Made by a program: the position numbers and the translations under genes. A DNA stretch of 64,000 nt. Source: Nonlabens xylanidelens. Its GTDB lineage: Bacteria; Bacteroidota; Bacteroidia; Flavobacteriales; Flavobacteriaceae. The stretch lies in the NCBI RefSeq assembly GCF_002934445.1, contig NZ_PTJE01000003.1:1-64000 (forward strand). Direction: 5' to 3'. Shown here piece after piece: positions 14,699 through 33,168 of this stretch (positions within the stretch are counted from its first letter, which is position 1; each line of letters opens with the position of its first letter). The notes under the pieces were generated by a model. It was not told where the DNA came from, did no database searches, and saw nothing but the letters and a program-made list of their open reading frames with translations.

Positions 14699-14701
14699 AT
14701 G

Positions 14702-14902: not shown

Positions 14903-14936
14903 CAGATTGCCACGCTCGTGCCTCGCTCGCAATGAC
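14903..14936 (-). repeat. REP-like repeat R3 (inverted)
   Basis: Same element on the minus strand: GTCATTGCGAG, centre CGAGGCACGAGCG, right box slightly changed (TGGCAATCTG). Confidence 0.8.
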
Positions 14937-14949
14937 GGACTTGAAAGAC

Positions 14950-14961
14950 GCTCGCAATGAC
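14950..14961 (-). repeat. REP-like repeat R4, left-box fragment
   Basis: Only GTCATTGCGAGC remains. It starts at the last base of the hsdS stop codon, so the gene ends exactly where the repeat begins. Confidence 0.65.
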
Positions 14962-17785: not shown

Positions 17786-17814
17786 TTAGGGTACTATTTG
17801 TGTGTTGTAATTCC

Positions 17815-17828
17815 GCTTTCGCGAAAGC
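17815..17828. repeat. 14-bp palindrome, intergenic copy upstream of hsdM
   Basis: Perfect copy with flanks TTCC and GAGAT, the same flanks as the copy at 19733-19746. Confidence 0.9.
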
Positions 17829-17895
17829 GAGATTTTTATTGATTATATCGAATTCTAAAACTACTATTCTTTATATAGAAATCTCGCATGATTTC

Positions 17896-19059: not shown

Positions 19060-19084
19060 AGATAAGGTACTTTTTAAAATAAAA

Positions 19085-19153
19085 AAAACCTAAAACACAC
19101 TTATCCAATGATAAAGGAAAAAGCATGTTTTAGGGGATTGTGAAGATAAGAAT
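19085..19153 (-). terminator. Hairpin terminator with conserved upstream flank (copy A)
   Basis: On the minus strand the arms CCTAAAACA/TGTTTTAGG (19134-19126 and 19097-19089) are followed by a run of eight T. It can end transcripts from the KTSC gene. The 25 bases at 19153-19129, just upstream, match the element at 42994-42970 in 22 of 25 positions; they include TATCTTCA, a poor match to a -7 box. Confidence 0.65.
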
Positions 19154-19197
19154 TTATAGCACAAATCATTTCCGTATAAATAAAATTCCACTGTGTA

Positions 19198-19563
19198 TTA
19201 ATCTAAATCTGGCGCGCAAGGCGAGTTATCACCATAGGGTTCTATATATTTCCAGAACGCTTTTCCTGCGCTGTTTAAATAATTTATGGAGTAGTTATAT
19301 TTTGTATTAGACCCTACTTGATACAAATACTCACTACAGCCATAGGAGTATTTACTTTTAAAGCAAACTACGGCATAATATACCGTGCTGTAATCTATAG
19401 TTGCTTCATAAAAAGTAACCTTGGACACGGCAGTACTCAAAGAACTGGTATAGGTAGAACCATAATAATTCTCATCTAGATAATCTATTTGTTCCTGACA
19501 AGTTTGAGAAAAAACCATGCTTGTTAAAAACAATAATGTAATGGTGGTCAATAGGGTTTTCAT
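19198..19563 (-). CDS. Secreted KTSC-like small protein
   Basis: 121 aa from the ATG at 19563; the in-frame start at 19602 lies across the promoter box and was rejected. A signal peptide ends at VFSQ. The mature part, SKVTFYEATID ... YYAVVCFKSK ... YLYQVG ... AGKAFWKYI, has the spacing of a KTSC domain (a small domain that ends in an S/A-x-G-x-[YF]-x-x-x-I helix). Four Cys residues suggest disulfides. The promoter upstream carries the GGGATACCGTAA element 21 bp from a -7 box. Function unknown; domain call moderate. Confidence 0.72.
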   Translation of the reverse strand: MKTLLTTITLLFLTSMVFSQTCQEQIDYLDENYYGSTYTSSLSTAVSKVTFYEATIDYSTVYYAVVCFKSKYSYGCSEYLYQVGSNTKYNYSINYLNSAGKAFWKYIEPYGDNSPCAPDLD

Positions 19564-19599
19564 GTGGTTTATTAAAACAGTTTTAAGTTCTATAAAAAA

Positions 19600-19674
19600 C
19601 AAACCTAAACCTATCTCTTATCATTCCTTTACGGTATCCCGTAACGTGGAGTTGATTTGTTATAAATATCTTTG
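19600..19674. promoter_or_regulatory. Divergent promoters around a GGGATACCGTAA operator
   Basis: The palindromic operator TTACGGTATCCCGTAA lies at 19629-19644. On the minus strand a TAGGTTTG box (19607-19600) is 21 bp away and faces the KTSC-like gene. On the plus strand TATCTTTG (19667-19674) is 22 bp away and faces the secreted nuclease gene at 19780. Both boxes match TAnnTTTG exactly. Confidence 0.6.
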
Positions 19675-19732
19675 TGCGGTTCTTATTTTAGTAGTTTTAC
19701 TATTTGAGATCGATTTGTTTTTTTTTAATTCC

Positions 19733-19746
19733 GCTTTCGCGAAAGC
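19733..19746. repeat. 14-bp palindrome, intergenic copy upstream of 19780
   Basis: Perfect copy in the leader of the secreted nuclease gene. Confidence 0.9.
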
Positions 19747-19779
19747 GAGATCATCAACCCACTTAACACCTATTTTATA

Positions 19780-20610
19780 ATGAGTTTAAAGCATCTGTTT
19801 CTATTACTGTTTTTCTTATTAAGCATGCCTAACTTAGTGAGTGCGCAGGATGAGATCGCTCTAGTTTCATGGAATATTAGAGATTTTGGTAAAACAAAGT
19901 CGGCTGAAGAAATAGAACAGATAGGTGCTATTTTAAAGGAATATGATGTGATTGCGCTGCAAGAAGTGGTGTCTGGTTACGGCGGCTCGCAAGCGGTGGC
20001 TAGACTGGCAGATTACCTTAATAGGACGGGAAGCAAGTGGGATTATTCTATAAGTAATCCTACTAAAAGTCCTAAGTACAAAACGGAGAAGTATGCCTTT
20101 TTATGGAAAACGAGTAAGGTGAAAGTTATAGAAAAGGCAAAACTAATTACTGACCTAGATGAATGTGTTTATAGAGAACCGTATCAAGTAAAATTGGAGT
20201 CTAAGAAGGGATCGAAGGGTTCTTTTACTTTGCTTAATTATCACTCTAGAAAACATAGTGAGCAACCTGAAATAGAGGTGAGTTGTATAAACGATTATAT
20301 GATGAATCATAAGAACGAGAATATAATCCTTGCTGGTGATTTTAATTTAACGATAGATCACAATGTATTTGATAAAATAAAGAACGATTCTTATAAAGCA
20401 TGTTTAAATGGAAATAGAACGACTTTAAAACGATTGTGTAAAGACGGTAATTATTTGAATCATGCTATAGATAATATTATCTACAACGCTGCAAAAAATG
20501 AGTTGATGGATTGCGGTACGATAGACTTTGTCAAAGAGTGTGGTCAACTAGAATCCATGAGAATGCTGTCTGATCATTTACCGGTTTATATGAGGTTTAA
20601 AAGCAATTGA
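19780..20610 (+). CDS. Secreted endonuclease/exonuclease/phosphatase-family (DNase I-fold) protein
   Basis: 276 aa. A signal peptide ends at LVSA. The DNase I-fold motifs are complete: SWNIRDFG (Asn metal/phosphate ligand), IALQEV (catalytic Glu), NYHSRKH, LAGDFNL (Asp/Asn) and SDHLPV (catalytic His). It is probably an extracellular or periplasmic nuclease that hydrolyses DNA for nutrients, though a phosphodiesterase role cannot be excluded. It is divergent from the KTSC-like gene and shares its operator. Confidence 0.88.
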   Translation: MSLKHLFLLLFFLLSMPNLVSAQDEIALVSWNIRDFGKTKSAEEIEQIGAILKEYDVIALQEVVSGYGGSQAVARLADYLNRTGSKWDYSISNPTKSPKYKTEKYAFLWKTSKVKVIEKAKLITDLDECVYREPYQVKLESKKGSKGSFTLLNYHSRKHSEQPEIEVSCINDYMMNHKNENIILAGDFNLTIDHNVFDKIKNDSYKACLNGNRTTLKRLCKDGNYLNHAIDNIIYNAAKNELMDCGTIDFVKECGQLESMRMLSDHLPVYMRFKSN

Positions 20611-20739
20611 ATTATCCAAATCGTATACCTATAAAAAACTCATTTCTTATCGGTAAATAGAAACATGATTATTTAAATAACTAATGGTCACTCTATATCG
20701 TAAGAATCTCTACAAGAACACAATTGATTACATGATGTA

Positions 20740-21327
20740 TTAATAATACAATCTAAAATCGAGCAATTTACTAAGCTGATGATGTTTATAGAACAGACGT
20801 TCTACGACTTGTTTTAAATCGTCGTTTTCATAGAATAGACTGAAGAATACACGGTCGATGGTGAAGGCGCTGGTCATGTGAGGTGAAGGAACTCCATAAC
20901 CAGAAATGGCGCGAGCACCTGTAACGTCTAGAAAATACTGAGATTCATCTGCAGTGAGATCGAGTACTTTTTTATTTGCTATATGAATCAGCTTTCCTTC
21001 CATTTTACCTTCAAAAAGCTCTGCTATTTCTTCTATGCTGTAGTAATAACCGTTTATTAATATATTGTTAGCTTCTCCTGGTAGGACCAGATAAATGATC
21101 TCGTAATCTTTAAAATTATGATCTTCATAAAGCAAGTGATTGATACTTTCTTCTAGATCTTCTATGGTATCGCAGGCCTTATAAATACTATTGATATTTT
21201 GATTTAACGTCATATCTTCTAGAATGGTAAGTACCTCTGTCGTCTCAGTCAAAGTAGCGTCTGGAACGACCTCTAGACAATAAATGAAATTTTCTATATC
21301 GGTTATGGGTACTTCTAATTCATTCAT
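20740..21327 (-). CDS. Conserved cytoplasmic protein, DUF6642-like
   Basis: 195 aa, acidic, no signal or membrane segment. The block LLYEDHNFKDYEIIYLV, followed by YYYSIEEIAELFEG and QYFLDVTGARAISGYG, resembles a family I remember as DUF6642, whose alpha/beta core looks like a caspase or CHAT-type fold. No catalytic His-Cys pair can be assigned, and there is no Cys after the VTGARAISGYG block. It is a single gene, convergent with the nuclease gene. Confidence 0.7.
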   Translation of the reverse strand: MNELEVPITDIENFIYCLEVVPDATLTETTEVLTILEDMTLNQNINSIYKACDTIEDLEESINHLLYEDHNFKDYEIIYLVLPGEANNILINGYYYSIEEIAELFEGKMEGKLIHIANKKVLDLTADESQYFLDVTGARAISGYGVPSPHMTSAFTIDRVFFSLFYENDDLKQVVERLFYKHHQLSKLLDFRLYY

Positions 21328-21885
21328 GGTCTGGGATTCTTTTTTTACTATACAGCTTCTTTAAGTCGACTATGCCTTCATAGCCTTGCAAATTATTGCT
21401 TTTTATTTTTAGAATACAAAATGATGTGCATGTTCTTCTAGTCACTGTTTCCATTTATCTTTTACTAATTCATAAATATGTATGAAAATTTATCAAAGTA
21501 GAAACATCGGTTTTTACCTCACTTTTTTAAATCAATCGTTTCAAAACCGATTTAGTTATCATTTGTTTTAAAACTAAAGAACAATAGTATTAATGTGTCG
21601 CATGAAGTAAGTAGTCTCAAATAAAGCTAGACAGATTTAAAAGGTTTTATCTAATATTGAATTGATATACAAAGAAGTATTGCGTCTAAGGGTGATCTTA
21701 ATGTGATAAATTTTGAGTAAATTTTACCTTTCTTAAAAAGCAACCAACCTCGTTATGATTACTATAAGTTTATACCGAACATACCTATATTCCGTATTTA
21801 TGGTTATGATAAGACATTTGAATTTTTATTCAAGATCAGGCTCCTATATGCTTAGTTTAAAATATAATTTGAAAAACTTTATATA
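21328..21885. other. 558-bp intergenic region without recognised features
   Basis: AT-rich spacer between divergent genes. I see no reading frame, hairpin terminator or exact TAnnTTTG box that would support a feature. Promoters for both flanking genes must lie here. Confidence 0.5.
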
Positions 21886-22257
21886 ATGGAGCATTGGTAT
21901 CTACCCATAACTATCATACCAGGAATAGGTCTTTTGATTCTATCGACATCTAATTTAATGGTCGCGCTTAGTGATGAGTTGGACAAATTAATAACTAATT
22001 GTAAGGACGATAATTTAATAAGTCGCAAACTGAAACAGTTAAAATTATTGAATAGAGCTATGATTTACTTTTATATAGCGGTTTTCTTATTACTCATTTC
22101 TGGAGTGATTGCTGGTATAAATCAAAGCTATAAAATAGCAACCTATTTAGGAGTTTGTGCGATTGCAGTAGCAACGTTTGGGCTTGTATCATTGATTATA
22201 TATTCAACTAGATCTGTGAATATTCATCAAAATCAATTTAAAAATAGATCTAATTAA
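21886..22257 (+). CDS. Small membrane protein, DUF2721-like
   Basis: 123 aa with three hydrophobic segments (about 6-28, 60-80, 88-110) and a charged linker between the first two. The pattern PGIGLLILSTSNLMVALSDEL is like DUF2721 proteins. It lies 12 bp upstream of the Rieske-TPP gene and is probably cotranscribed with it. No function can be given. Confidence 0.7.
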   Translation: MEHWYLPITIIPGIGLLILSTSNLMVALSDELDKLITNCKDDNLISRKLKQLKLLNRAMIYFYIAVFLLLISGVIAGINQSYKIATYLGVCAIAVATFGLVSLIIYSTRSVNIHQNQFKNRSN

Positions 22258-22269
22258 ATCAACTTAATT

Positions 22270-24213
22270 ATGGATAATAAAAAGTGGTATAAAGTTTTAG
22301 ATAATAGAAATACGTTGCCCGAAGGACGTGTACAAACCGTAACTGCTGGTCATCAAGGTATTTGTTTAACACATTATGACGGCAAATTTTCAGCACTAGA
22401 TAACGCCTGTCCACATCAAGGCGGTCCTCTAGGAGAAGGTTCTATAGAAAACGGTATGCTGCGATGTCCGTGGCACGGTTGGGATTTTGACCCTTGCAAT
22501 GGTCAGTCGCCAGGTGGTCATGATGATAGTATTATCACTTTTGAAGTAAAAGAAGAAGGCGACGCCATTTATGTTGCCATACCAGAAGAGGAGTCTCACA
22601 AAGACACGATATCTGACGTCATGATAGAAACCATGGTAAACTGGGGCATAGACACCGTTTTTGGAATGGTAGGACATAGTAATCTTGCCGTGGCAGATGC
22701 TATGCGCCGACAAGAAGAGAAAGGAAAACTACAATTTTTTGGGATAAGACATGAAGGCGCCGCAGCGTTTGCAGCATCTGGTTATGCAAAATTAACTGGA
22801 AAACCTGCTGCATGTTTTGGGATAGCTGGTCCTGGCGCTACAAACATGTTTACAGGAATGTGGGATGCCAAAGTAGATCGAGCACCTATGCTAGCCCTTT
22901 CTGGACAAGTAAATACACAAGTAGTAGGAACAGGAGCTTTTCAAGAAGTGGATCTCGTTAAGGCTTTTGACAGCGTTACACAATTTAATCATGCGGTTCA
23001 TTTAAACTCTAATCATAGTGAGTTAATGTCTCAAGCTGTAAAAACTGCGTTGATCAAAAGAGATGTGGTACACATAACTTTTCCTGATGAAGTAGCCTTT
23101 ACTGAAAAGCCAGAACATGCCGTAGCGCAAACACCAGAAAATAGAATTACCCCTTTTAATATATCGCCTCCCAAGGAAATGGTAGAAAAGGCGGTTAACT
23201 TACTTAAGAAAGCAAAAAGACCTGTAATTATAGTAGGCCATGGAGCACGTTTTGAGATGGATGCTATTACCGCTTTCGCGAAAGCGTTAAACTGTCCAGT
23301 CATAACCACATTTAAAGCAAAAGGATTGATAGCAGACAGTCATCCATTAGGTTGTGGTGTGCTAGGAAGAAGCGGTACTCCTATCGCATCTTGGTTTATG
23401 AATGAATGTGATCTTATGCTCGTGTTAGGTGCATCGTTCTCTAACCATACTGGAATAACACCTAAGAAACCTATTATTCAGGTAGATTACGATCCTATGG
23501 CATTGAGTAAACACCATAAAGTAGATGTGGCATTATGGGGAGAGATTTCTGAAACGCTTCATATTATTACTACTCAAACTAAAGATAAAACCGCTGCCAT
23601 AGATCAGACCGAAGAAATTAAAGAACGATGGAAACTGTGGAGAGAGGAAAAAGAAAGTCGTTTAAAGGACTGTGGTAATGGATTGAGCTCTATTTCTGTA
23701 TTTAACGCAATGAATAAAGTTACTCCAGATAACGCTGTTATAGCGGTAGATGTAGGGAACAACACCTACTCTTTTGGAAGGTATTTTGAACCGACAAATC
23801 AAGCCGTATTAATGTCTGGATATTTAGGCTCTATAGGATTTGCTTTACCAGCAGCTATGGGAGCATGGGCTGCCCAAGGTGATAAAAGACCTATATGGTC
23901 TGTGTCTGGTGATGCTGGTCTAGGACAGTACCTAGCCGAAATAAATACACTAGTCAAGTACAATATGAATATTAAACACGTCGTGCTTAATAATTCTGAA
24001 CTAGGAAAAATATCTAAAGAACAACGTGCTGCCGAGGTAGATGTATGGCAAACATCGCTCTCTAACCCAAGCTTTGCAAAATATGCAGAGAATTGCGGTG
24101 CTCTAGGAATACGTGTAGAAAAGTTAGAAGATCTAATTCCTGCAATGGAAAAACTACGTGATCATGATGGTCCTGCACTACTAGAAATTATTACAGATGT
24201 AAATTTGATTTAA
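22270..24213 (+). CDS. Rieske [2Fe-2S] domain fused to a thiamine-pyrophosphate enzyme (pyruvate oxidase/acetolactate synthase family)
   Basis: 647 aa. Residues 1-105 form a Rieske ferredoxin domain with cluster ligands C47-x-H49 (CPHQGG) and C66-x-x-H69 (CPWHGWDF). Residues from about 115 form a three-domain TPP enzyme: HEGAAAFAASGYAKLTG with the activating Glu, a central nucleotide-binding-like domain, and the C-terminal TPP/Mg motif GDAG ... NN (VVLNNSELGKIS). Enzymes like PoxB decarboxylate a 2-keto acid and pass electrons on; the attached Rieske domain suggests electron transfer within one chain. The substrate is unknown. A palindrome copy encodes AFAKA at about residue 335. It is downstream of the DUF2721-like gene and followed by a strong terminator. 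Confidence 0.88.
   Translation: MDNKKWYKVLDNRNTLPEGRVQTVTAGHQGICLTHYDGKFSALDNACPHQGGPLGEGSIENGMLRCPWHGWDFDPCNGQSPGGHDDSIITFEVKEEGDAIYVAIPEEESHKDTISDVMIETMVNWGIDTVFGMVGHSNLAVADAMRRQEEKGKLQFFGIRHEGAAAFAASGYAKLTGKPAACFGIAGPGATNMFTGMWDAKVDRAPMLALSGQVNTQVVGTGAFQEVDLVKAFDSVTQFNHAVHLNSNHSELMSQAVKTALIKRDVVHITFPDEVAFTEKPEHAVAQTPENRITPFNISPPKEMVEKAVNLLKKAKRPVIIVGHGARFEMDAITAFAKALNCPVITTFKAKGLIADSHPLGCGVLGRSGTPIASWFMNECDLMLVLGASFSNHTGITPKKPIIQVDYDPMALSKHHKVDVALWGEISETLHIITTQTKDKTAAIDQTEEIKERWKLWREEKESRLKDCGNGLSSISVFNAMNKVTPDNAVIAVDVGNNTYSFGRYFEPTNQAVLMSGYLGSIGFALPAAMGAWAAQGDKRPIWSVSGDAGLGQYLAEINTLVKYNMNIKHVVLNNSELGKISKEQRAAEVDVWQTSLSNPSFAKYAENCGALGIRVEKLEDLIPAMEKLRDHDGPALLEIITDVNLI
23272..23285. repeat. 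14-bp palindrome, coding copy (Rieske-TPP enzyme)
   Basis: Perfect copy, AFAKA frame, in a helix of the central domain. Confidence 0.9.
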
Positions 24214-24222
24214 ATCTTTGAT

Positions 24223-24256
24223 AAAATGGCAACTACGAGAGTTATTGCCATTTTTA
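24223..24256 (+). terminator. Terminator of the Rieske-TPP operon
   Basis: AAAATGGCAA and TTGCCATTTTT arms around a 12-nt loop, starting 10 bp after the stop codon. Confidence 0.8.
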
Positions 24257-24332
24257 AATAAATTTTAAAAATTACGACAGCATCTAAAGTTTTAAAAGTT
24301 GCTACGTTAATTAAAGAAAGAATAAAATAATT

Positions 24333-25349
24333 ATGATTAAGAAGATGAAATTGAGTTTCGGCTTTATATTATTACTATGTTTTAGTACCGCTCTAAATGC
24401 ACAAGATTTATCAAGCCTTTTTGGGCAACTAGATGAATCTGTAGTAACTATAGAGGTTGTTGAATATAAGGTACAAAATCAGCAAGTAACTAGTTCAGGT
24501 GGTTTAGGATCTGGTGTTATTATAAGTAAGGAAGGTTTAATTCTTACGGCTGCACACGTGGTGGAGTCTGCAAACGAGATCTCTGTTAAACTTCAAAATG
24601 GAATAGCCTTCTCGGCAGATGTGATATCCAGCTCTAAAGCCGCAGATGTAGCTTTACTTAAACTAAGAACGATTCCTACTGGTTTACAACCTGCTGTAAT
24701 AGGAGATTCTAATAAATCAAAGGTAGGAGAACAAATACTTGTTATAGGTGCACCTCGTGGACTTGAGCATTCTTTATCTGTAGGTCACATAAGTAGAAAA
24801 GTCGATAAAAACATGATAGCAAATGGAGAAATGGCTGGATTTATACAGACAGATGCTTCTATAAATCAAGGTAACTCTGGCGGGCCTATGTTTAATGTAA
24901 AAGGCGAAGTTATAGGTATTGTAAGTTTTATTCTAACTAACAGTGGTGGTTTTGAAGGTTTAGGATTTGCCGTAGACACTAATACTATAAAAAAAGTACT
25001 GTTTGATGTAAATAGTTTTTGGACTGGTTTTGATGGATTATTTTTAAACGAAGGACTAGCAGGCATATTTAATACTCCACAGAAATCTGGTGTATTGATA
25101 CAACGTGTTCTTCCTAATTCATTTGCTGACAAAATAGGATTGAAACCAGGTGTTATACAAGCTGAAATTTTAGGGCAAAAACTATGGTTAGGTGGTGATA
25201 TAATTTTGAGTATTCAAGGTTTAAGTTGCAACAGTCCTCATGATCTAGGTTCTATTAAAAAACAAATAGAAAGTCTCAATGAAGGTGATAAAGTACTTAT
25301 TAAAGTTTTGAGAAAAGGAAAAGTACTGACTCTAGAGGCTAATTTTTAG
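24333..25349 (+). CDS. HtrA/DegP-like trypsin-type serine protease with PDZ domain
   Basis: 338 aa. A signal peptide ends at LNAQ, so it acts in the periplasm. The catalytic triad is visible: His75 (LTAAHVV), Asp105 (ADVALLK) and Ser182 (GNSGGP). The C-terminal region from about 245 is PDZ-like (GVLIQRVLPNSFADKIGLKPG ...). Only one PDZ is present, as in DegS. It is the first gene of an operon with a K+ channel (7-bp gap) and an antiporter (7-bp gap), which suggests a role in envelope stress or quality control of these transporters. That link is inference from gene order. Confidence 0.9.
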   Translation: MIKKMKLSFGFILLLCFSTALNAQDLSSLFGQLDESVVTIEVVEYKVQNQQVTSSGGLGSGVIISKEGLILTAAHVVESANEISVKLQNGIAFSADVISSSKAADVALLKLRTIPTGLQPAVIGDSNKSKVGEQILVIGAPRGLEHSLSVGHISRKVDKNMIANGEMAGFIQTDASINQGNSGGPMFNVKGEVIGIVSFILTNSGGFEGLGFAVDTNTIKKVLFDVNSFWTGFDGLFLNEGLAGIFNTPQKSGVLIQRVLPNSFADKIGLKPGVIQAEILGQKLWLGGDIILSIQGLSCNSPHDLGSIKKQIESLNEGDKVLIKVLRKGKVLTLEANF

Positions 25350-25356
25350 TAGTCTT

Positions 25357-26016
25357 ATGAAATTACTATCTATAATTAACTGGAACACGATAACGAGCAA
25401 CAAGTATTTGATTGCTCTAATTGCTGCATTCAACTTTTTATTGACTCCTATTCATGTAGCAATAAGTAGCCTTACACCTGGTTATGTTATAGTAATTAAT
25501 TATACATTAGTCATATTGAGCAGTTCATTACTGGCCTCTAAAAAAAGTGCTAAATTAGTTACCTATGTGATAGGTATATTAACTTTACTAGCTATATGGT
25601 TAGAACTATCTAACCAGAATTCTGATCCTATATTAATATATAGATTAACGACTTCACTCCTACTTTTTTCTTGTTTTGGTGTTATATTAATCAGACAGCT
25701 ATTAAAAATAAAGAAGGTAAACCTACAGTTTATCTTAGGGCCATTATTGGGGTTTCTTTATCTGGGAATAATAGGAGGTATTTTTTTTGAATCCATACAT
25801 TTAATAGATCCTAATTCATTTGAATTAATAAAGGGGTACTCTGGTTTTAGTTTTTACTATTTTAGTTTCATCAGTATAACAACAGTAGGTTATGGTGATA
25901 TTACTCCAATTAGTGCACCTGCACAATCACTTACTCTAGTGATGAATATAATAGGTCAGTTTTATCTCGCTATAGTGATAGCCGTATTTGTAGGGAAATA
26001 TATTAATACTAAATAA
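25357..26016 (+). CDS. Voltage-gated-like K+ channel protein
   Basis: 219 aa with about six hydrophobic segments. The selectivity filter TTVGYGD is followed by ITP and a last membrane helix, the signature of the K+ channel pore domain. The voltage-sensor part is degenerate, with few regularly spaced Arg/Lys, so gating may be simple. It lies between a periplasmic protease and a cation/proton antiporter, suggesting a shared job in ion homeostasis. Confidence 0.88.
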   Translation: MKLLSIINWNTITSNKYLIALIAAFNFLLTPIHVAISSLTPGYVIVINYTLVILSSSLLASKKSAKLVTYVIGILTLLAIWLELSNQNSDPILIYRLTTSLLLFSCFGVILIRQLLKIKKVNLQFILGPLLGFLYLGIIGGIFFESIHLIDPNSFELIKGYSGFSFYYFSFISITTVGYGDITPISAPAQSLTLVMNIIGQFYLAIVIAVFVGKYINTK

Positions 26017-26023
26017 AAATAAA

Positions 26024-27271
26024 ATGTTCGAGTCATTCAGTATCGTATTTACTATTGCAGCATTTTTTAGCTACATTAATTATAAGTGGTTAAAATTACC
26101 TACTACCATAGGTTTAATGATTTTAAGCTTGCTACTCATTATACCTATCACTTTAAGTAAGTCTATCTTTCCTGAGTTTTATAAATTCTTTTGTGACATC
26201 ATTGTTAATGCAGATTTTAAAACACTTTTATTAGATGGTATATTGAGTTTCTTATTATTTGCAGGAGCGCTGCATGTTAACCTTGCCGCACTAGCCAAAG
26301 AAAAGAAATCAATCATCTTATTTGCAACTTTAGGAGTTCTTATATCTACCGTAATCGTAGGTACTTTAACTTATTTTGCAGCACAACTATTTGATTTAGA
26401 TTTACTTTTTATACATGCACTTCTTTTTGGAGCTTTAATATCACCTACTGATCCTATCGCTGTTATGGCTATTTTAAAGAAAGCTAATATTGCCGAAAGT
26501 CTAGGAATTAAAATAGAAGGAGAATCGCTTTTTAATGATGGTATAGGCGTGGTTGTTTTCTCAGGAATACTCATAATAGCATCTGTTACTGGAGAATTTA
26601 ATAGTACCGAAATAGGAACTGAAATAGGCATTCTATTTTTAGAAGAAGCTGTAGGCGGCATACTTTATGGATTATTGATAGGTTTTATAGGCTTAAAATG
26701 TATGCAGTCCTTAAATGATAACCCACAACTTGCAGTAATGATGAGTCTTGCTGTAGTAATGGGTGGAACAGCAGGAGCCTTTTTAATGCATACCTCTGCT
26801 CCACTAGCTATGGTAGTCGCAGGATTATTAATCGGTAACAAAATCCATGTTAGTGAAAATAAAAGTGAAGTACAAATAGCTATCAATTCATTTTGGGCCA
26901 TCCTAGACGACGTTTTTAACGGTATTCTATTTGTACTAATAGGTCTTGCCATTCACTTATTAGATTTTACTAGCAGTTATGTCTACCTAGGTGTAATAAC
27001 AATTATCATTGTGTTGTTAGCAAGATTTATTTCTGTGTTCTTACCTTATTCTTTACTTAAACATGAAGAAGATAAACCTATTAAAACCATTGCTATATTG
27101 ACTTGGGGTGGTTTACGCGGTGGTATTTCTATAGCACTAGCATTAAGTTTAAGTGATCAGTATTCTGGGAATCTTATTTTGCATATTACCTATATTATCG
27201 TCATTTTTTCAATTATAATACAAGGATTAAGTATAGGTACCGTTGCTCAAAAATTATATAAGAAGGGATAG
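26024..27271 (+). CDS. Na+(K+)/H+ antiporter, CPA1 (NhaP-like) family
   Basis: 415 aa with 11-13 predicted membrane helices. The transport core shows SPTDPIAVMAILKKA (the TDP motif of unwound helix IV), ESLFNDGIGVVVF (ND motif of helix V) and WGGLRGGISIALALSL (helix XI region), all diagnostic of CPA1 exchangers. It lacks the long C-terminal regulatory tail. Ion choice cannot be told. It is the last gene of the protease-channel-antiporter operon, closed by the terminator at 27411-27437. Confidence 0.92.
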   Translation: MFESFSIVFTIAAFFSYINYKWLKLPTTIGLMILSLLLIIPITLSKSIFPEFYKFFCDIIVNADFKTLLLDGILSFLLFAGALHVNLAALAKEKKSIILFATLGVLISTVIVGTLTYFAAQLFDLDLLFIHALLFGALISPTDPIAVMAILKKANIAESLGIKIEGESLFNDGIGVVVFSGILIIASVTGEFNSTEIGTEIGILFLEEAVGGILYGLLIGFIGLKCMQSLNDNPQLAVMMSLAVVMGGTAGAFLMHTSAPLAMVVAGLLIGNKIHVSENKSEVQIAINSFWAILDDVFNGILFVLIGLAIHLLDFTSSYVYLGVITIIIVLLARFISVFLPYSLLKHEEDKPIKTIAILTWGGLRGGISIALALSLSDQYSGNLILHITYIIVIFSIIIQGLSIGTVAQKLYKKG

Positions 27272-27387
27272 AAGGAAATTCACGTACTATAATTAACGAG
27301 GTTGTGGAGGTAAAAACATCTGGAATTTTCCTATTTACTAAATACAAGGTTATAGTTTCTGGTCAAGTAATTGAATTTACTGAATAA
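27262..27387 (+). pseudogene. Possible C-terminal gene remnant
   Basis: A 41-codon open frame without ATG overlaps the antiporter end and runs to a stop at 27387. Its translation (EVVEVKTSGIFLF, then VIVSGQVIEFTE) reads like a beta-rich protein end rather than random DNA. It could be a leftover of a deleted gene, or chance. Confidence 0.2.
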
Positions 27388-27410
27388 TACAGACTACCCA
27401 ATTCATTTAT

Positions 27411-27437
27411 AAAAGCACCCAATCAATGGGTGCTTTT
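27411..27437. terminator. Bidirectional terminator
   Basis: AAAAGCACCC, AATCAA, TGGGTGCTTTTTT between convergent genes. It serves both the antiporter operon and the minus-strand gene at 27449. Confidence 0.85.
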
Positions 27438-27448
27438 TTATTTCCTTT

Positions 27449-28192
27449 TTATTCTACACAAATATGTGTATCAATCATGTAGCCTGAAATAGGTTTAAGG
27501 GTTTTACCTGTCTCTGGATGCAGCCCTAAATCTGTAAAGTACTCTAACTGTTTATCACCATTCTTTCCATACCAGACTAGAACGCTACCATCTGGATGAA
27601 AGAAATCAGTGAGGCAGGTTACTTTTATTTTCCTGAATGATAAAATGCGATCTTCTTTATATAATTTTAATTGTTTTATGTCGTATTTCTTGGCGTCAAA
27701 ATCCACTTCAGTATAGCGGTCTTCTTTCCAGACCATCCATCGCTGTCTGGTCGTATAATTATATAGCCAGAATAAAAGAATACACATTACACCTATCAAA
27801 ATGTAAAATCTATAGTTTCTTAAAATAGACTTTTTAGGCAATTTCTCTACAGCCGATTTTACTACAGTAGATTCTATTATAATAGGTCCATCCACTTCTA
27901 GTGTATCATTTCTATTTACAAAATCCTGATAATTTTCATATCCTAAATAATGACATAAACCTGTAATAACATCCACTTGTTTGATTCTTATATCTCCTGC
28001 GTCGTGCTCTAGTTTTTGTGCTGCACTTCTATAATCTCTCAGGCTACGTTCACCTAAATTAAAGTCCATCTTTTCGTCTAAATAGCTAGATATTTCTGTC
28101 GCTTTTTCAGTAAGAGAAGGCTTAATTATGCCTTTATTTTTGATTTCTTGTTCCGCTTTCGCGAAAGCGTGCATTATTAAAATTTTATTCAT
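27449..28192 (-). CDS. Membrane-anchored protein with flavobacterial N-terminal helical domain
   Basis: 247 aa. Residues 1-95 form a helical domain with LGERSLRDYRSAA and GLCHYLGYENYQDFV, a pattern I recall at the N-terminus of various flavobacterial proteins of unknown function. One membrane helix lies at about 127-147. The C-terminal 100 residues (FHPDGSVLVWYGKNGDKQLEYF) are beta-rich and probably extracytoplasmic. The palindrome encodes residues 9-13 (AFAKA), at the very start of the protein. No enzyme motif is visible. Confidence 0.75.
   Translation of the reverse strand: MNKILIMHAFAKAEQEIKNKGIIKPSLTEKATEISSYLDEKMDFNLGERSLRDYRSAAQKLEHDAGDIRIKQVDVITGLCHYLGYENYQDFVNRNDTLEVDGPIIIESTVVKSAVEKLPKKSILRNYRFYILIGVMCILLFWLYNYTTRQRWMVWKEDRYTEVDFDAKKYDIKQLKLYKEDRILSFRKIKVTCLTDFFHPDGSVLVWYGKNGDKQLEYFTDLGLHPETGKTLKPISGYMIDTHICVE
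28155..28168. repeat. 14-bp palindrome, coding copy (N-terminus of the 27449-28192 gene)
   Basis: Perfect copy, AFAKA frame on the minus strand. Confidence 0.9.
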
Positions 28193-28537
28193 ACTACTGA
28201 TTAACAGATTATTAAATCAAGGAAAGTTATTGGAAAAAGATTTCCTGAATATTTCCAAACAGTTTCCCACGCTCTTCCTATGGGACAGAAACAATAGACT
28301 TTTATTTGTCCCAGAATTAATGACCGCCTTACTCGCAATAGGGCTTGCGATAATCAATTCTATCATGGAGTTGCCAGGTAATTGAGATGACCATTTGGGA
28401 AGTAATTATCTCTTTTACTCGTGCCAGTTCCTACTTCCCTAAGAAGAACAAACTCTTCTAAATAAAGCAAGTGTTGCTATAAAAAATATTCTGAGAAAAT
28501 CTCGGACAGCCACACCTATGCCCAATTTTAAACACTC
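28193..28537. other. 345-bp leader/intergenic region with hairpins
   Basis: No gene is supported. It holds inverted repeats GGGACA/TGTCCC (about 28281-28313) and a small CGCAA/TTGCG hairpin. On the minus strand there is a CCGAGATTTTCTCAG hairpin followed by ATATTTTTTA (about 28505-28478) that could end a short transcript from the promoter at 28545-28538. Confidence 0.4.
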
Positions 28538-28581
28538 CAAATATGAAAAAATTATTATTAATAGTCCTTACGGTATCCCTC
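28538..28581 (-). promoter_or_regulatory. Candidate promoter with GAGGGATACCGTAA operator (minus strand)
   Basis: On the minus strand GAGGGATACCGTAA (28581-28568) is followed after 22 bp by CATATTTG (28545-28538), one mismatch from TAnnTTTG. The geometry equals that at 31622-31664. It faces the 27449 gene with a 340-nt leader, and it overlaps the start of the lipoprotein gene in antisense. Confidence 0.45.
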
Positions 28582-28713
28582 AATCTGGCATTATTTTCTT
28601 GTACTCCAGATAAAATTATAGAAGAAACTACAGAGGTACAAGCCTGTTGTGATGACGAAGGAACTATAGAGTTACCACCGCCACCACCACCAGCAGATGA
28701 GTCTGAAGATTAA
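28543..28713 (+). CDS. Small Pro-rich lipoprotein
   Basis: 56 aa. A short signal peptide has lipobox LFSC (Cys20). The mature part has CC at 35-36, six consecutive Pro (45-50) and an acidic end (ADESED). It is 35 bp upstream of the TPR histidine kinase. I do not know its function; position suggests an envelope-side partner or target of the kinase. The 14-base operator lies inside its signal-peptide codons. A protein this short has little statistical weight, but a complete lipoprotein signal supports it. Confidence 0.72.
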   Translation: MKKLLLIVLTVSLNLALFSCTPDKIIEETTEVQACCDDEGTIELPPPPPPADESED

Positions 28714-28748
28714 TCGCTAGTTGTAAAATTTGTTATTACATTAGAGGA

Positions 28749-30377
28749 ATGAAACTAACCTTTACTTCATTCCTCTTTTTATTTTTCACCTATCTCATAA
28801 CAAACTCGTTACATGCACAGAGTACAGATTCTACACAATACTATGTGAGACTAATTAAGAATCCTAAACAGAGTAACGATCTTGCTAGGGCTTATAAATA
28901 TTTTTCTAAACAAAAAATTAAACATTATAAGGCTGGATTATTTCTAAAAGAAATATACGACAATCAAAATCTTGCTGAAATTCAAAAAGAACTAGGTTTA
29001 ATCTATGAGAGTGAACGGTTAAATGTAGAAACCTTAAGATTGATAGATCGATTAGAAAAAAAGACGCCCTGGACGGACCATTGTTATTTAAAAACTATTA
29101 ATGAGTTAGGAATACTCTATAGAGAAAAGAAGGATTATACAGAGGCTTTATCTTTTTATGACGAGGCATTAAATAAGGTTAAACTACCTAAAAATATTTC
29201 TACTCTTTTAAATAATAAAGGACGCACTTATGAATCTCTAGAACAACTGGAAAAGGCAAAAGGTTTTTATGAAAAGGCTTATGATATAGCCATAGAGGTT
29301 AATGATTCTAGCAAAATAGCAAGATCACTAAGTAATCTAAGTTATGTAAAATCAAAATTAAATATTCCCGGTGCCGAAGAGGGATTACTAGAGGCACTTA
29401 ATATAAGGCGTAAAGGGAAAAACAGTAACGCATTAGGTTCTAGTTATACGCATTTAACTAAATATTATTTGAGTAAAAAAGATACCTTGAATATGTCCAA
29501 ATATTCAGATCTTTTTTTAAACATGGCTTATAAAAATGGAGCTATACGACAGTTAGAAAGTGCTTTACGTTTAAAAATACAAATAGGAGACTCTAATAAT
29601 GCAAAAGAATATTTGCGTTTAAGCGATAGCCTAATTACCATAAACAAGACAAAACTCAACAATTTTAATCACTACGTTTATCAATACAATAAGAAAGAGA
29701 AAGATCTACAAGACAGTAAATTAAAAAATGAGAGATTGATCTATCTCTTGTTATTTATAGCATTAGGAGCTGTTTCTATCTATTTTATCTTAAAGTATAA
29801 ACACAGGAAGGAAAAATTCCAAGAAATATATAATACAGAAACACGCATCTCGAGAAAAATCCATGATGAAGTTGCAAATGATGTTTACCATGTAATGACC
29901 CAATTACAAGATTCTCCAGAAACTAACAAAACTTTACTAGACCATTTAGAAGATATTTATAAGCGTACTAGAGATATTTCTAGAGAGAATAGCTCTATAG
30001 ATCTTAATATTAACTTTAAAGATTTAATAAGCGATCTTTTATTAAGTTATAAAACTGAGAGGATTAATGTCCTATCCATGGGAATACAACAAATTAACTG
30101 GCAACACTTAAATAATTTACAAAAGTCTACTATTTATAGGGTATTACAAGAATTACTGACCAATACAAACAAACATAGTCAGGCCTCTATTATTGTGATA
30201 AACTTCAGCTATACTGGTAAATCTATTGTCATTAATTATAAGGATAATGGTATAGGAACAGAATTAATTAAAGGAAATGGATTGCAGAATACGGAAAACC
30301 GTATTCATTCCATAAATGGATCTATTACTTTTGAATCTGAAACAGAAAAAGGGTTCAAAGCAATAATAACTATTTAG
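28749..30377 (+). CDS. TPR-containing sensor histidine kinase
   Basis: 542 aa. A signal peptide ends at LHAQ. A periplasmic TPR-like helical array (about 90-310) includes ELGILYREKKDYTEALSFYD. A membrane helix at about 332-350 is followed by the phosphoacceptor helix RISRKIHDEVANDVYHV and a HATPase_c domain (ELLTNTNKHSQA, DNGIGT, GNGLQNTENRI). The architecture is common in Flavobacteriia. It is followed 3 bp later by its response regulator. The ligand is unknown; TPR sensors usually bind peptides or partner proteins. Confidence 0.92.
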   Translation: MKLTFTSFLFLFFTYLITNSLHAQSTDSTQYYVRLIKNPKQSNDLARAYKYFSKQKIKHYKAGLFLKEIYDNQNLAEIQKELGLIYESERLNVETLRLIDRLEKKTPWTDHCYLKTINELGILYREKKDYTEALSFYDEALNKVKLPKNISTLLNNKGRTYESLEQLEKAKGFYEKAYDIAIEVNDSSKIARSLSNLSYVKSKLNIPGAEEGLLEALNIRRKGKNSNALGSSYTHLTKYYLSKKDTLNMSKYSDLFLNMAYKNGAIRQLESALRLKIQIGDSNNAKEYLRLSDSLITINKTKLNNFNHYVYQYNKKEKDLQDSKLKNERLIYLLLFIALGAVSIYFILKYKHRKEKFQEIYNTETRISRKIHDEVANDVYHVMTQLQDSPETNKTLLDHLEDIYKRTRDISRENSSIDLNINFKDLISDLLLSYKTERINVLSMGIQQINWQHLNNLQKSTIYRVLQELLTNTNKHSQASIIVINFSYTGKSIVINYKDNGIGTELIKGNGLQNTENRIHSINGSITFESETEKGFKAIITI

Positions 30378-30380
30378 AAT

Positions 30381-31046
30381 ATGTTTAAGAAAGTATTAAT
30401 TTCAGATGACTTTGGTAGTATCAATAAAGGTGTCCTGACAGTTTTAAATCAGGCAGGTATTAACAATGTAAAACAAGTGCAATACTGTGACGATGCTTAT
30501 CTAGAAATAAAAAGTGCTATCAAGAATAATGTTCCTTATGATCTATTTATAACAGATCTTAATTTTAAAACAGACCATCGTGCTCAAAAATACGGCTCTG
30601 GAGAGGCTATTACAGAGCAATTAAGAAAAGAATACCCTACTCTGAAGATGATTACTTACTCTGTTGAAGACCGATTACAAAAGGTACGTCACCTTATCAA
30701 TAATATAGAAGTTAATGCATTTGTATGTAAGGGTAGAAATGGATTGCTAGATTTATCAAAAGCTATCGATAGTGTTTATAAAAATGAGCTTTTCTTATCT
30801 GATCAGGTTAAGCAAGCATTACATTCTAGAAACGAACTAGAAATAGTGGACTATGATATTCACCTGCTTACACAACTATCTCTAGGACATTCTAAAGACG
30901 CTATAAGTAATTATTTTAAGGAGAATGGCATAGCTCCTAATAGTCTTAGCTCAATAGAAAAAAGACAAGGTAAATTACTTATTCAATTTAGAGCTAGCAA
31001 TGCTATACACTTGATAAGTATTGTTAAAGATCTAGGTTTGATATAA
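30381..31046 (+). CDS. Response regulator with divergent C-terminal helical output domain
   Basis: 221 aa. The receiver domain has SDD at 8-10, phosphoacceptor Asp59 (FITDLNF) and a Lys in FVCKGRNG. The C-terminal part (about 155-221) contains LTQLSLGHSKDAISNYFKEN and SSIEKRQGKLL. This recalls a LuxR-type HTH in spacing but lacks its usual residues, and includes an insertion. It is cognate to the kinase 3 bp upstream. The operator GGGATACCGTAA on both sides of the operon is a plausible binding site, which is inference. Confidence 0.85.
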   Translation: MFKKVLISDDFGSINKGVLTVLNQAGINNVKQVQYCDDAYLEIKSAIKNNVPYDLFITDLNFKTDHRAQKYGSGEAITEQLRKEYPTLKMITYSVEDRLQKVRHLINNIEVNAFVCKGRNGLLDLSKAIDSVYKNELFLSDQVKQALHSRNELEIVDYDIHLLTQLSLGHSKDAISNYFKENGIAPNSLSSIEKRQGKLLIQFRASNAIHLISIVKDLGLI

Positions 31047-31145
31047 TATCACACTTAGTGTCTTTCTTAAATAAATTAGAAATGATTAAAACGAAATCAA
31101 TTCAATGAAGTCGTACTAAGTATTTAAATAAAAGATAATTTATTT

Positions 31146-31316
31146 TTAATCAGGAATATTACTTACAAAGTGTTTAAAATAAACTTGATAGTAGAGTTTT
31201 TTCTGATAGGACTTACTACCAGAAGATCGTTTTTTCTTAATTTTTTCTACACCTATGTAAGTTGCTATGGCAATAGCAAATAGTATAGCAATAATTAAAA
31301 TTAAATACGTATCCAT
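31146..31316 (-). CDS. Possible small membrane protein
   Basis: 56 aa. One N-terminal hydrophobic segment (about 4-22, rich in Ile/Ala/Leu) is followed by a strongly basic tail (KIKKKRSSGSKSYQKK) and an aromatic end. This is the layout of small single-pass membrane proteins. It is convergent with the regulator gene. No homologue is recognised; a chance frame is possible. Confidence 0.5.
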   Translation of the reverse strand: MDTYLILIIAILFAIAIATYIGVEKIKKKRSSGSKSYQKKLYYQVYFKHFVSNIPD

Positions 31317-31621
31317 ATAAAAGTAAACTGGCAGATCTAAAAAACTCTAAAGTTGTAGATCTTTATAGTTTGCAAATTAAAACCCTAGTCTTTAAAACAT
31401 TAATCCTGTAGGTATAAGTTTACCGTTATTCGTTAAGTCGCCAGGAATATAGGATTATAAACAGAAGAACGAGATTTTTTTTGAAAAGATTCTCTTCAAG
31501 CCTGCACAGATATCAAAACCCTATATAATCTAAAATACTGTTTGGACGTTATTATTTAGCTCTTATTTAATGAGGCCTCTTAATGTAGTTTAAAGAAAAA
31601 TAAGAATTTAAATGACTAAAT
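31317..31621. other. About 300-bp intergenic stretch, nothing recognised
   Basis: AT-rich; no coding frame or terminator seen. It may contain the promoter of the small minus-strand gene. Confidence 0.4.
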
Positions 31622-31664
31622 GAGGGATACCGTAAAAATATATCAAATCGTACCTTTATGTTTG
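31622..31664 (+). promoter_or_regulatory. Promoter with GAGGGATACCGTAA operator
   Basis: GAGGGATACCGTAA at 31622-31635, a 21-bp spacer, then TATGTTTG (31657-31664), an exact TAnnTTTG box. The operator would be centred close to the -35 region, as for an activator. Downstream there is only a short RNA ending at the hairpin 31711-31741. Confidence 0.6.
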
Positions 31665-31670
31665 TACCGT

Positions 31671-31741
31671 TAGATTAATCAGAAGATTAATTTATATTAA
31701 GGGGAAGTTAAAGCACATACTTTTAAAGTATGTGCTTTTTT
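31671..31741 (+). ncRNA. Candidate short RNA
   Basis: Bounded by the promoter at 31657-31664 and a strong terminator. The expected length is about 70 nt, with no open frame over 15 codons. The terminator may in part serve the opposing gene at 31762, so expression needs proof. Confidence 0.4.
31711..31741. terminator. Bidirectional terminator
   Basis: AAGCACATACTTT and AAAGTATGTGCTTTTTT arms. It lies between the candidate RNA (plus) and the end of the DUF5706 gene (minus). Confidence 0.85.
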
Positions 31742-31761
31742 ATTTTGAGAAAGATTGTTTC

Positions 31762-32388
31762 TTATAATAAACCACCAAATAAAACATGACATGCTACAAA
31801 AGCAATAACAGATAGGATAATACCTACTAAGAAAACATGAAAAGAATGTCTTAATAATTTGAATTTATGATTCATGGTTTTACCTAAATGAAAAGTATCT
31901 TTTGCAATGGTTTTATATAACTCATCACCTTCATTCATCAACGAGGTGATTTCATTTACATAATCTTCTTCTTCCATATTCTGAAAATTACCATAGAACA
32001 TCAAATTTCTAGATTTTTCATTTCCATGAACTAATTCTGGACGCGTTGCAAAAATTGCAAAGGTTATGGAAGCAAGATTAGTAAGTAACATCATAATCAC
32101 AGGATAAATAAGGTGAGGATCATTTTTAAGCTGTCCCATTACCGTACCTAGAATTAATGATAAAATCAAAGCATTAATAGAAATCAAGATGTTAGATTTT
32201 TTATCTATCATCGAGTTTAACGTGTATTGATTTTTAGAAAGTAGTCTAAATAAAGTCTCTACACCACGCTCAGATCTAGGTTCTAATTTTGCTAGTTTTT
32301 TCTTGAGTGCTTTTAACTTCTCCTTATCCACATTTAATTCGGTCATTAAATATTTCTCTTCTTCTTTTCTTATCTGTTTATCACTCAT
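31762..32388 (-). CDS. DUF5706 (Pycsar-TM-like) membrane protein
   Basis: 208 aa. The helical N-terminus is followed by RGVETLFRLLSKNQYTLNSM and DKKSNILISINALILSL, then membrane segments at about 70-90, 95-115 and 180-205, with YGNFQNMEEEDY between. This matches the DUF5706 domain, which forms the membrane effector of Pycsar anti-phage systems but also occurs in flavobacterial HD-domain proteins. Here neither an HD domain nor a nucleotide cyclase gene adjoins it. It is the last gene of a minus-strand run behind the Rieske-glutamate-synthase fusion. Confidence 0.8.
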   Translation of the reverse strand: MSDKQIRKEEEKYLMTELNVDKEKLKALKKKLAKLEPRSERGVETLFRLLSKNQYTLNSMIDKKSNILISINALILSLILGTVMGQLKNDPHLIYPVIMMLLTNLASITFAIFATRPELVHGNEKSRNLMFYGNFQNMEEEDYVNEITSLMNEGDELYKTIAKDTFHLGKTMNHKFKLLRHSFHVFLVGIILSVIAFVACHVLFGGLL

Positions 32389-32413
32389 GAGATGTTGTTA
32401 TCTATCTTATGTA

Positions 32414-33157: not shown

Positions 33158-33168
33158 TATTTTATTTT

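What the first reader, a model, noticed from the sequence alone, without database searches (positions are those of the whole stretch)
19600..31664. Candidate regulon: GGGATACCGTAA placed 21-22 bp upstream of TAnnTTTG boxes at four promoters
The element occurs at 19629-19644 (palindromic, with boxes on both sides: N21-TAGGTTTG and N22-TATCTTTG), at 28581-28568 (N22-CATATTTG) and 31622-31635 (N21-TATGTTTG). Two of the three sites flank the TPR-kinase/regulator operon, and the third sits between a secreted KTSC-like gene and a secreted nuclease gene. Constant spacing to the -7 box argues for an activator site. The flanking regulator, with its unusual output domain, is the natural candidate.
Basis: partly seen in the sequence, partly recalled or inferred. 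Interest (0 to 1): 0.75.

Follow-up and report, generated by a model that had tools for sequence, protein, structure and literature searches.

The report
Defence regulon switch with small RNA
A short palindromic DNA switch, placed at one exact distance from the promoter and found mostly in flavobacteria that carry a particular sensor-regulator pair, appears to let that pair turn on a small RNA and a changing set of genes that includes many anti-virus defence systems.

Summary
The core is the palindrome TTACGG-N4-CCGTAA, 21 bp (sometimes 22) before a TAnnTTTG box. In 397 Flavobacteriaceae genomes it occurs at 114 places in 78 genomes; spacing is N21 in 105 of 114 although 18-24 was allowed, and the backwards control gave none. 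A pattern with N17 found 0 of 299 genomes. It co-occurs with the flanking response regulator (71 of 78; 19 to 1 within mixed genera), and 55 of 114 sites lie just downstream of that gene. Three of the four claimed promoters hold; the one at 28568 lies inside an overlooked lipoprotein gene. Behind the 31624 site lies no protein gene but a conserved ~70-nt RNA with compensatory changes and a terminator. Elsewhere the element precedes cas9 and its tracrRNA, Dnd, Gabija, type I restriction, PD-Lambda-1 and many small secreted proteins. Best reading: a TPR kinase and NarL/RcsB-like regulator switch on a small RNA and a horizontally changing, defence-rich regulon through a class II activator site. 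No expression or binding data exist here.

The parts
19600..19607 (-). TAGGTTTG -7 box, N21 from the element, towards the small secreted protein gene
19629..19644 (.). perfect palindrome TTACGGTATCCCGTAA, proposed bidirectional activator site
   Evidence: element with two divergent boxes also beside the orthologous nuclease gene in G003 and G020
19667..19674 (+). TATCTTTG -7 box, N22 from the element, towards the secreted nuclease gene
19198..19563 (-).
19780..20610 (+). endonuclease/exonuclease/phosphatase-family nuclease with a signal peptide (by eye); predicted target, recurs under the element in other species
   Evidence: Pfam Exo_endo_phos 1.8e-10, MnuA-like 5.4e-16 but below its cut-off
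28543..28713 (+). 56-aa lipoprotein (signal peptide, lipobox, CC motif, polyproline tail, all by eye), first gene of the kinase operon
   Evidence: orthologues in 6 of 8 congeneric loci with an intact regulator; same type upstream of the kinase in about 37 of 80 named loci (40 flagged by rule, 3 plainly false)
28568..28583 (.). element-like copy TTACGGTATCCCTCAA inside the lipoprotein coding sequence; probably not the promoter proposed
28749..30377 (+). histidine kinase with N-terminal signal peptide and one later TM segment (by eye), TPR region and kinase domain
   Evidence: Pfam TPR_12 4.5e-20, HATPase_c 1.8e-05, slightly below its cut-off; UhpB 1.6e-14 and LiaS 1.1e-10, both below cut-off
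30381..31046 (+). NarL/RcsB-like response regulator, the proposed activator
31620..31635 (+). element ATGAGGGATACCGTAA upstream of the small RNA (one half imperfect)
31657..31664 (+). TATGTTTG -7 box at N21
31669..31742 (+). predicted small RNA, about 70 nt: hairpin 1, AGGGGA linker, intrinsic terminator; both ends are inferred
   Evidence: z -6.3

Best explanation
The palindrome TTACGG-N4-CCGTAA (A/T at the two central bases) is the binding site of a dimer of the response regulator encoded at 30381-31046. Placed 21 bp upstream of the TAnnTTTG box (centre near -41.5, taking the box at -12 to -5 as mapped in Flavobacterium psychrophilum), it stands next to where a -33 element would be and activates sigma-A promoters that lack that element (class II activation). 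The upstream kinase, whose TPR region is predicted by eye to be periplasmic, and the small lipoprotein of the same operon are taken to sense something at the envelope. When phosphorylated, the regulator switches on (1) a small RNA behind its own gene, with a hairpin, a G-rich stretch and a terminator, presumably an antisense regulator, and (2) a changing set of genes: small secreted and lipoproteins, secreted nucleases, and anti-phage systems that have acquired this promoter. Shown here by sequence: the element, its fixed spacing, its co-occurrence with the regulator, the conserved RNA structure and the identity of downstream genes. Inferred: binding, activation, the envelope signal, the RNA's targets, and protection against phage.
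For: 114 family sites, 105 at N21, backwards control 0 of 397 genomes; N17 pattern 0 of 299. In viral contigs N21 70 stretches, N17 0, N25 0. RR and site co-occur: 71 of 78 site genomes have RR against 72 of the 319 others, Fisher 7e-30; within 36 mixed genera 19 to 1, 2 ties with sites, 14 without any. 55 of 114 sites lie downstream of RR on the same strand within 3 kb. In 158 distinct strict N21 sites the two central bases, left free by the search, are A/T in 158 and 157, and a TTG at -33 spacing occurs in only 3. RR: D10, D59 and K117 invariant in 39 sequences, C-terminus strongly conserved; model pLDDT 88.5, closest solved folds RcsB and other NarL-type regulators. RNA: 5 of 17 pairs changed on both sides, 3 of them in hairpin 1, 97.1% of cells paired, 0 of 500 shuffles; outside the genus too, 47 of 69 sites next to RR are followed by a terminator and 40 of those 47 hold GGG before it. 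Targets: Cas9, DndC, DndD/PbeC, GajA, type I restriction and methylation, PD-Lambda-1, PDC-S28, PDC-M60A, PDC-S60, PDC-M26A; in 113 control ORFs the best PADLOC hit was 1.5e-28.
Against: No binding, expression or transcription-start data. 72 of 143 RR genomes have no strict site and 7 genomes have sites without an RR hit at the cut-off used; one of the two CRISPR cases (G012) has no RR hit, nor has G303, which supplies two of the defence hits. The window's own RNA site is imperfect in one half. Two of four own-genome perfect sites, and the cas9 side of both CRISPR cases, have a box with one mismatch. Many targets are not defence genes (malonate transporter, AMP-binding enzyme, S15 peptidase, MscS). 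Terminators were not detected for 22 of 69 sites next to RR, and the RNA model finds nothing strong in G006 and G018 although both have RR and an element. The measure 'further standard pair types' gives no support (384 of 500 shuffles as high), and related sequences can exceed shuffles without structure. A predicted pairing of the RNA with the operon's own lipoprotein mRNA was not better than expected. PADLOC is redundant for restriction systems, and only 20 of 101 target ORFs, chosen as likely, were scanned singly.
Confidence: 0.78

Rival explanations
1. The element is bound by a different transcription factor that merely co-occurs with the kinase-regulator pair; the pair is itself one of its targets.
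For: Sites without an RR hit in 7 of 78 genomes; viral contigs carry the same promoter, with some repressor-like genes behind it.
Against: Association survives within genera (19 to 1); sites cluster directly behind the regulator gene; in G029 and G262 the site lies just upstream of it, as in autoregulation; a NarL-type dimer suits a short palindrome.
Confidence: 0.1
2. It is a general envelope-stress or surface regulon (small lipoproteins, secreted proteins, peptidases, YidD); defence genes appear because the accessory region behind the regulator and genomic islands are rich in them.
For: Many near-regulator targets are small secreted or unknown proteins; the commonest Pfam families there are DUF4236, M48, DUF6804 and TerB.
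Against: The strong defence hits counted come from promoters that I classed as remote from the regulator, directly behind the element; control ORFs from 20 random stretches of site-bearing genomes gave 0 of 113 at 1e-40 against at least 14 of 99; one element serves cas9 and a tracrRNA-like gene divergently in two genera.
Confidence: 0.25
3. The conserved RNA is not a regulator but an untranslated remnant or a terminator with a promoter, or it encodes a very short peptide.
For: The RNA body is short (median 39 nt before the terminator) and its sequence varies between genera.
Against: Compensatory changes in hairpin 1, not only in the terminator; G-run in 40 of 47 and CTATTA in 24 of 47 against 9 and 2 of 78 mRNA-type leaders; 11 of the 13 terminator-bearing units have no ATG-started ORF of 30 aa in the first 150 nt (exceptions G059, 42 aa, and G004, 30 aa).
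Confidence: 0.15
4. The element is a repressor operator.
For: A palindrome near -41 could also block polymerase.
Against: The promoters show no excess of a -33 TTG (3 of 158) and the spacing to the box is nearly invariant, which fits an activator; repressor sites usually tolerate other positions (general knowledge).
Confidence: 0.07

Closest known systems
Rcs envelope-stress phosphorelay with RcsB and the RprA small RNA (enterobacteria; general knowledge)
   Same: NarL-type regulator (closest solved folds include RcsB, also in complex with the rprA promoter), a small lipoprotein in the system, a small RNA as target.
   Different: RcsB equivalog cut-off clearly missed (28.6 against 235 bits); single kinase with TPR region instead of RcsC/RcsD; the lipoprotein has no shown relation to RcsF; operator and genome layout differ.
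PpoS/PpoR - Csr cascade controlling CRISPR-Cas in Marinomonas mediterranea (PMC8523701, abstract and outline seen)
   Same: A kinase and response regulator control CRISPR-Cas expression and phage resistance, with small RNAs in the circuit.
   Different: That is a BarA/UvrY-CsrA pathway; CsrA was not found in this genome, and here defence promoters seem to carry the operator themselves.
CovR control of cas9 in group B Streptococcus (PMC12216829, abstract and outline seen)
   Same: A response regulator acts on a cas promoter.
   Different: CovR represses; here a proposed activator site serves cas9 and a tracrRNA divergently.
Rsm (Csr) control of several CRISPR-Cas systems in Serratia (PMC8450108, abstract and outline seen)
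   Same: One pathway coordinates several defence systems.
   Different: Post-transcriptional through RsmA; here transcriptional through a shared operator.

Membership tests
NarL/LuxR-type response regulator | receiver domain with conserved phospho-acceptor aspartate | tested here: met
   D10, D59, K117 invariant in 39 sequences; Pfam Response_reg 23.7 bits, below the 30.2 cut-off; fold match
NarL/LuxR-type response regulator | C-terminal four-helix HTH | tested here: met
   predicted helices 157-167, 172-181, 189-202, 208-217; PDB matches to RcsB, LiaR, VraR
Pfam DUF5932 | score at or above the curated cut-off | tested here: not met
   22.4 against 23.7 bits, just below
Rcs system | RcsB equivalog | tested here: not met
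   28.6 against 235 bits
Csr/Rsm-type regulatory RNA circuit | CsrA present | tested here: not met
   PF02599 0 of 1 in the own genome; found in 3 of 14 control genomes
Class II activator-dependent promoter | operator at a fixed position abutting the promoter core, no own -33/-35 element | tested here: met
   105 of 114 at N21; -33 TTG in 3 of 158
Class II activator-dependent promoter | activation by the bound regulator | not testable with these tools
   needs expression or in-vitro transcription
Known Rfam RNA family | match at gathering score | tested here: not met
   0 matches for window 17000-34000; only hits below gathering score
Intrinsically terminated bacterial small RNA | promoter-like sequence, conserved structure, intrinsic terminator, no ORF | tested here: met
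   no ORF of 30 aa in 11 of 13 terminator-bearing units, the window's among them
Intrinsically terminated bacterial small RNA | transcript of the predicted size | not testable with these tools
   needs RNA-seq or Northern blot
Anti-phage defence regulon | known defence genes directly behind the operator | tested here: met
Anti-phage defence regulon | regulator changes phage resistance | not testable with these tools
   needs phage assays

The most novel reading that the evidence does not exclude
One envelope-sensing two-component system is a family-wide master switch of anti-phage immunity in flavobacteria: unrelated, horizontally acquired defence systems (CRISPR-Cas9 with its tracrRNA, Dnd, Gabija, restriction, PD-Lambda-1) plug into it by carrying the same palindrome at N21, a linked small RNA adds a second layer, and prophages have adopted the same promoter.
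Probability: 0.5. Interest if true: 0.88.

Novelty: new variant of a known kind. Interest (0 to 1): 0.78.

Why it matters
How bacteria decide when to run their many defence systems is an open question, and regulation in Bacteroidota is little studied. Here a sequence rule of 18 fixed bases predicts regulon members in Flavobacteriaceae and a neighbouring family, with next to no background in the controls run, so the claim can be tested directly by deleting one regulator gene. It would also give the group a two-component-controlled small RNA and would point to genes of unknown function behind the element (for example the 614-aa family at C2:74512) as candidate defence genes.

Tried and rejected
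Promoter at 28568: rejected as proposed; the copy is in a lipoprotein coding sequence and its 'box' is the start-codon region. Type I restriction operon of the window (17785-11539) as part of the leftward transcript: not accepted; a terminator-like hairpin with a T run follows the 121-aa gene (by eye), so hsdM and hsdS were left out of the comparison. CsrA sponge for the RNA: rejected, no CsrA found. Pairing of the RNA with the operon's own lipoprotein mRNA: not supported (21 loci, median best rank 5.9% where about 9% is expected for the best of some seven windows, my estimate). Half-sites as sites: only weak excess, 62 against 42 over 23 genomes. Known RNA family: none. Riemerella RAYM_RS09735/09740 as the same system: rejected, described there as OmpR/BaeS-type PhoP/PhoR (passages of PMC5399024). 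Publications: among the rows listed by the searches (listings are cut, for instance 20 of 66) I saw no paper on this motif or regulator, and DUF5932 is in 0 papers; the library holds only open-licence papers.

Limits of the counts: the site and RR lists were typed; eight weak RR rows listed were not typed and one search does not list all matches, so closeness to RR is a lower bound. The RR-positive set includes G274, whose best match has stops. The near/remote split of targets was a typed list; the box rule was relaxed for three loci (L078, L082, L084). Genus membership was typed. The eight strong hits are the sequences the model was built from, so that call shows only that no further strong copy exists in those 23 genomes.
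Full report
WHAT WAS CLAIMED AND WHAT IS THERE. The element GGGATACCGTAA is present at the three stated places and only once more in the whole genome. Its real core is a palindrome, TTACGG-N4-CCGTAA, perfect at 19629-19644. Two divergent boxes flank it at N21 and N22, and the 31620-31635 copy has TATGTTTG at N21.

IS IT MORE THAN CHANCE. The own genome has four perfect palindromes (about 0.14 expected by my composition arithmetic), and all four have a TAnnTTTG-like box at N21 or N22 on at least one side, two of them with one mismatch. Among 397 Flavobacteriaceae genomes the pattern with a spacer of 18-24 gave 114 places in 78 genomes; 105 have N21, 7 N22 and 2 N20, and the backwards control gave none. 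With N17 instead, 0 of 299 genomes matched (the backwards form of that pattern matched twice). Viral contigs gave 70 stretches with N21 and none with N17 or N25. In a phylum-wide draw of 296 genomes the pattern occurred in 25: 19 of 30 in the own family, 5 of 6 in a second family of the same order, and 1 in another family of the class; backwards control none (families read from its table). Imperfect copies and half-sites show little or no excess.

WHO BINDS IT. A relative of the response regulator at 30381-31046 is found in 143 of the 397 genomes (E <= 1e-30; one of them, G274, with stops). Site and regulator occur together in 71 genomes, site alone in 7, regulator alone in 72, neither in 247 (Fisher 7e-30). 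Within 36 genera that contain both kinds of species, the site is commoner in regulator-bearing species in 19, in the others in 1, tied in 2 and absent in 14 (p 4e-05). In the window's genus, nine genomes with a full regulator hold 20 of 24 perfect palindromes, one with a broken regulator 2, and the other thirteen 2; two regulator-bearing genomes (G011, G018) have none that is perfect; the backwards control gave 5 places. Of the 114 sites, 61 lie within 6 kb of a regulator gene and 55 of these downstream on its strand. In 80 named loci fetched by the regulator (Nonlabens, Polaribacter, Winogradskyella, Maribacter, Olleya and others), 67 have the element with a box downstream by a relaxed rule and 46 by the strict one. 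The window's genus is inferred to be Nonlabens: congeneric G005 and G020 match records of N. dokdonensis and N. ulvanivorans in contig length and range.

HOW IT WORKS AS A PROMOTER. In 158 distinct strict N21 sites the two central spacer bases, which the search left free, are A or T in 158 and 157 cases, and a TTG at -33 spacing is present in only 3. In F. psychrophilum the TAnnTTTG box was mapped at -12 to -5 (passage of PMC9723704); that puts the centre of the element at about -41.5, the classical class II activator position (general knowledge). The regulator has invariant D10, D59 and K117 and a strongly conserved C-terminus; the model (mean pLDDT 88.5) has a four-helix HTH and matches RcsB, LiaR, VraR and spr1814 structures. 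The kinase has a signal peptide and a later membrane segment (by eye), TPRs and a HATPase domain, and resembles UhpB/LiaS-type kinases below their cut-offs. A small lipoprotein with CC and polyproline motifs precedes it here, in 6 of 8 congeneric loci with an intact regulator and in about 37 of 80 named loci (40 flagged, 3 plainly false).

THE SMALL RNA. Behind the regulator in congeneric genomes the element is followed by the box and then by about 70 nt with a hairpin, an AGGGGA-like linker and a strong terminator. On eight sequences from seven genomes, 5 of 17 pairs change on both sides, three of them in hairpin 1; 97.1% of cells pair and no shuffle of 500 reaches this, though one of five measures (further pair types) is no higher than in shuffles. 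A covariance model of these eight finds them again (68.7-77.6 bits) and nothing else above 34.8 bits in the 23 congeneric genomes, so the RNA is a single-copy feature of the locus (two in G011, where the regulator is also double); it is not found in G006 and G018, which have a regulator and an element. In the window the RNA lies about 0.6 kb beyond the regulator and folds with z -6.3. Among the 80 named loci, which include two of this genus, 69 have an element within 75 bp of the regulator's stop by a looser rule and 47 of the 69 a terminator; 40 of the 47 hold GGG before it (20% of shuffled bodies; 9 of 78 mRNA-type leaders) and 24 hold CTATTA near the 5' end (1.5%; 2 of 78). No Rfam family matches, CsrA was not found, and one guessed target, the lipoprotein mRNA, was not supported. 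An antisense role for the G-rich stretch is inference.

THE REGULON. In the own genome the four perfect sites precede: the nuclease and a small secreted protein (window); a PD-Lambda-1 gene (1.1e-188; C2:335178); a DUF4062 protein whose N-terminal part matches PDC-S60 (4.6e-49; C2:144911); and a 614-aa protein with no Pfam or PADLOC match whose relative also stands behind the element in G010 (C2:74512). Elsewhere: Cas9, DndC with DndD/PbeC, GajA, type I restriction and methylation enzymes, an McrB-like protein, a PDC-S28 helicase and a PDC-M60A protein. In G012 and G138 one element lies between cas9 (N21, box with one mismatch) and a tracrRNA-like gene (N22 and N21, exact box) whose anti-repeat matches the nearby CRISPR repeat by eye, with cas1- and cas2-like genes and the array on the far side of cas9 (the cas1/cas2 names are by position and eye); G012 itself has no regulator hit. 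With PADLOC at E <= 1e-10, 261 families were hit among 101 ORFs behind remote sites and 6 among 113 ORFs from 20 arbitrary stretches of site-bearing genomes. Counting proteins at E <= 1e-40 gives at least 14 of 99 against 0 of 113 (Fisher 1.4e-05); three of the 14 come from genomes without a regulator hit (G012, G303). The family count is inflated by redundant restriction models, and only 20 chosen ORFs were scanned singly; 6 of those 20 had no hit. Non-defence targets exist too: malonate transporter subunits, an AMP-binding enzyme, a peptidase, MscS. Near the regulator, recurring targets are small secreted or unknown proteins, TerB/TerY, SNase, HNH and GIY-YIG (the last two by eye), YidD, M48 peptidases and another type I restriction set.

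WHAT IS KNOWN. Two-component control of CRISPR-Cas exists in other bacteria (PMC8523701, PMC12216829; abstracts and outlines seen), as does coordinated post-transcriptional control (PMC8450108, abstract and outline). In the listings I saw no paper on this motif, this regulator family or such a small RNA in flavobacteria, and DUF5932 is in no held paper; subscription papers are not covered. It works like the Rcs-RprA arrangement but is not a member of it.

VERDICT. The operator and its spacing are close to certain from sequence; the regulator as its owner is very likely; the small RNA is likely; the defence emphasis is probable but needs expression and phage data.

Noticed in passing
viral contigs L367-L436: The same promoter (element, N21, TAnnTTTG) occurs in 70 stretches of viral contigs against 0 for N17 and N25. 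Of 53 distinct first ORFs behind it most match no PHROG at 1e-5; matches include repressors, head maturation proteases, a terminase subunit and an O-acetyltransferase.
   Followed up: partly
window 30289-30304: A palindrome ATACGGAAAACCGTAT near the 3' end of the kinase gene is identical in six orthologous loci; it may be an intragenic site or a coding constraint.
   Followed up: no
window 28503-28523 and orthologues: The leader of the lipoprotein-kinase operon holds CGGACAGC...TGTCC, an inverted repeat conserved in the congeneric loci shown (the window itself reads TGCCC at the second arm); possibly another operator or an RNA hairpin.
   Followed up: no
window 31762-32388 (-): A gene with a PycTM (Pycsar effector) domain, 1.7e-24, ends against the small RNA's terminator from the other side; no cyclase was looked for.
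   Followed up: no
window 11539-17785 (-): A type I restriction-modification set (hsdM, hsdS, hsdR) with a GIY-YIG-like ORF (by eye) between hsdS and hsdR lies beyond the leftward target gene, behind a terminator-like hairpin.
   Followed up: partly
L082:1587-3428 (-) and L073: A 614-aa family without Pfam or PADLOC match stands behind the element in the own genome and in G010, both times with a one-mismatch box (the G010 copy was compared by eye only); candidate defence gene.
   Followed up: partly
L039 (G017) and L031 (G011): The regulator is broken by stops in G017, which keeps two perfect palindromes; in G011 the regulator (second copy at least in part) and its small RNA occur twice about 5 kb apart.
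   Followed up: no
L151, L121, L088, L167 and others: A recurrent ~49-aa protein (MAVKN.E.GEVHRG.KGG.TGCGFDT...HW by eye) and a recurrent secreted ~240-aa family stand behind the element in several genera; both of unknown function.
   Followed up: no
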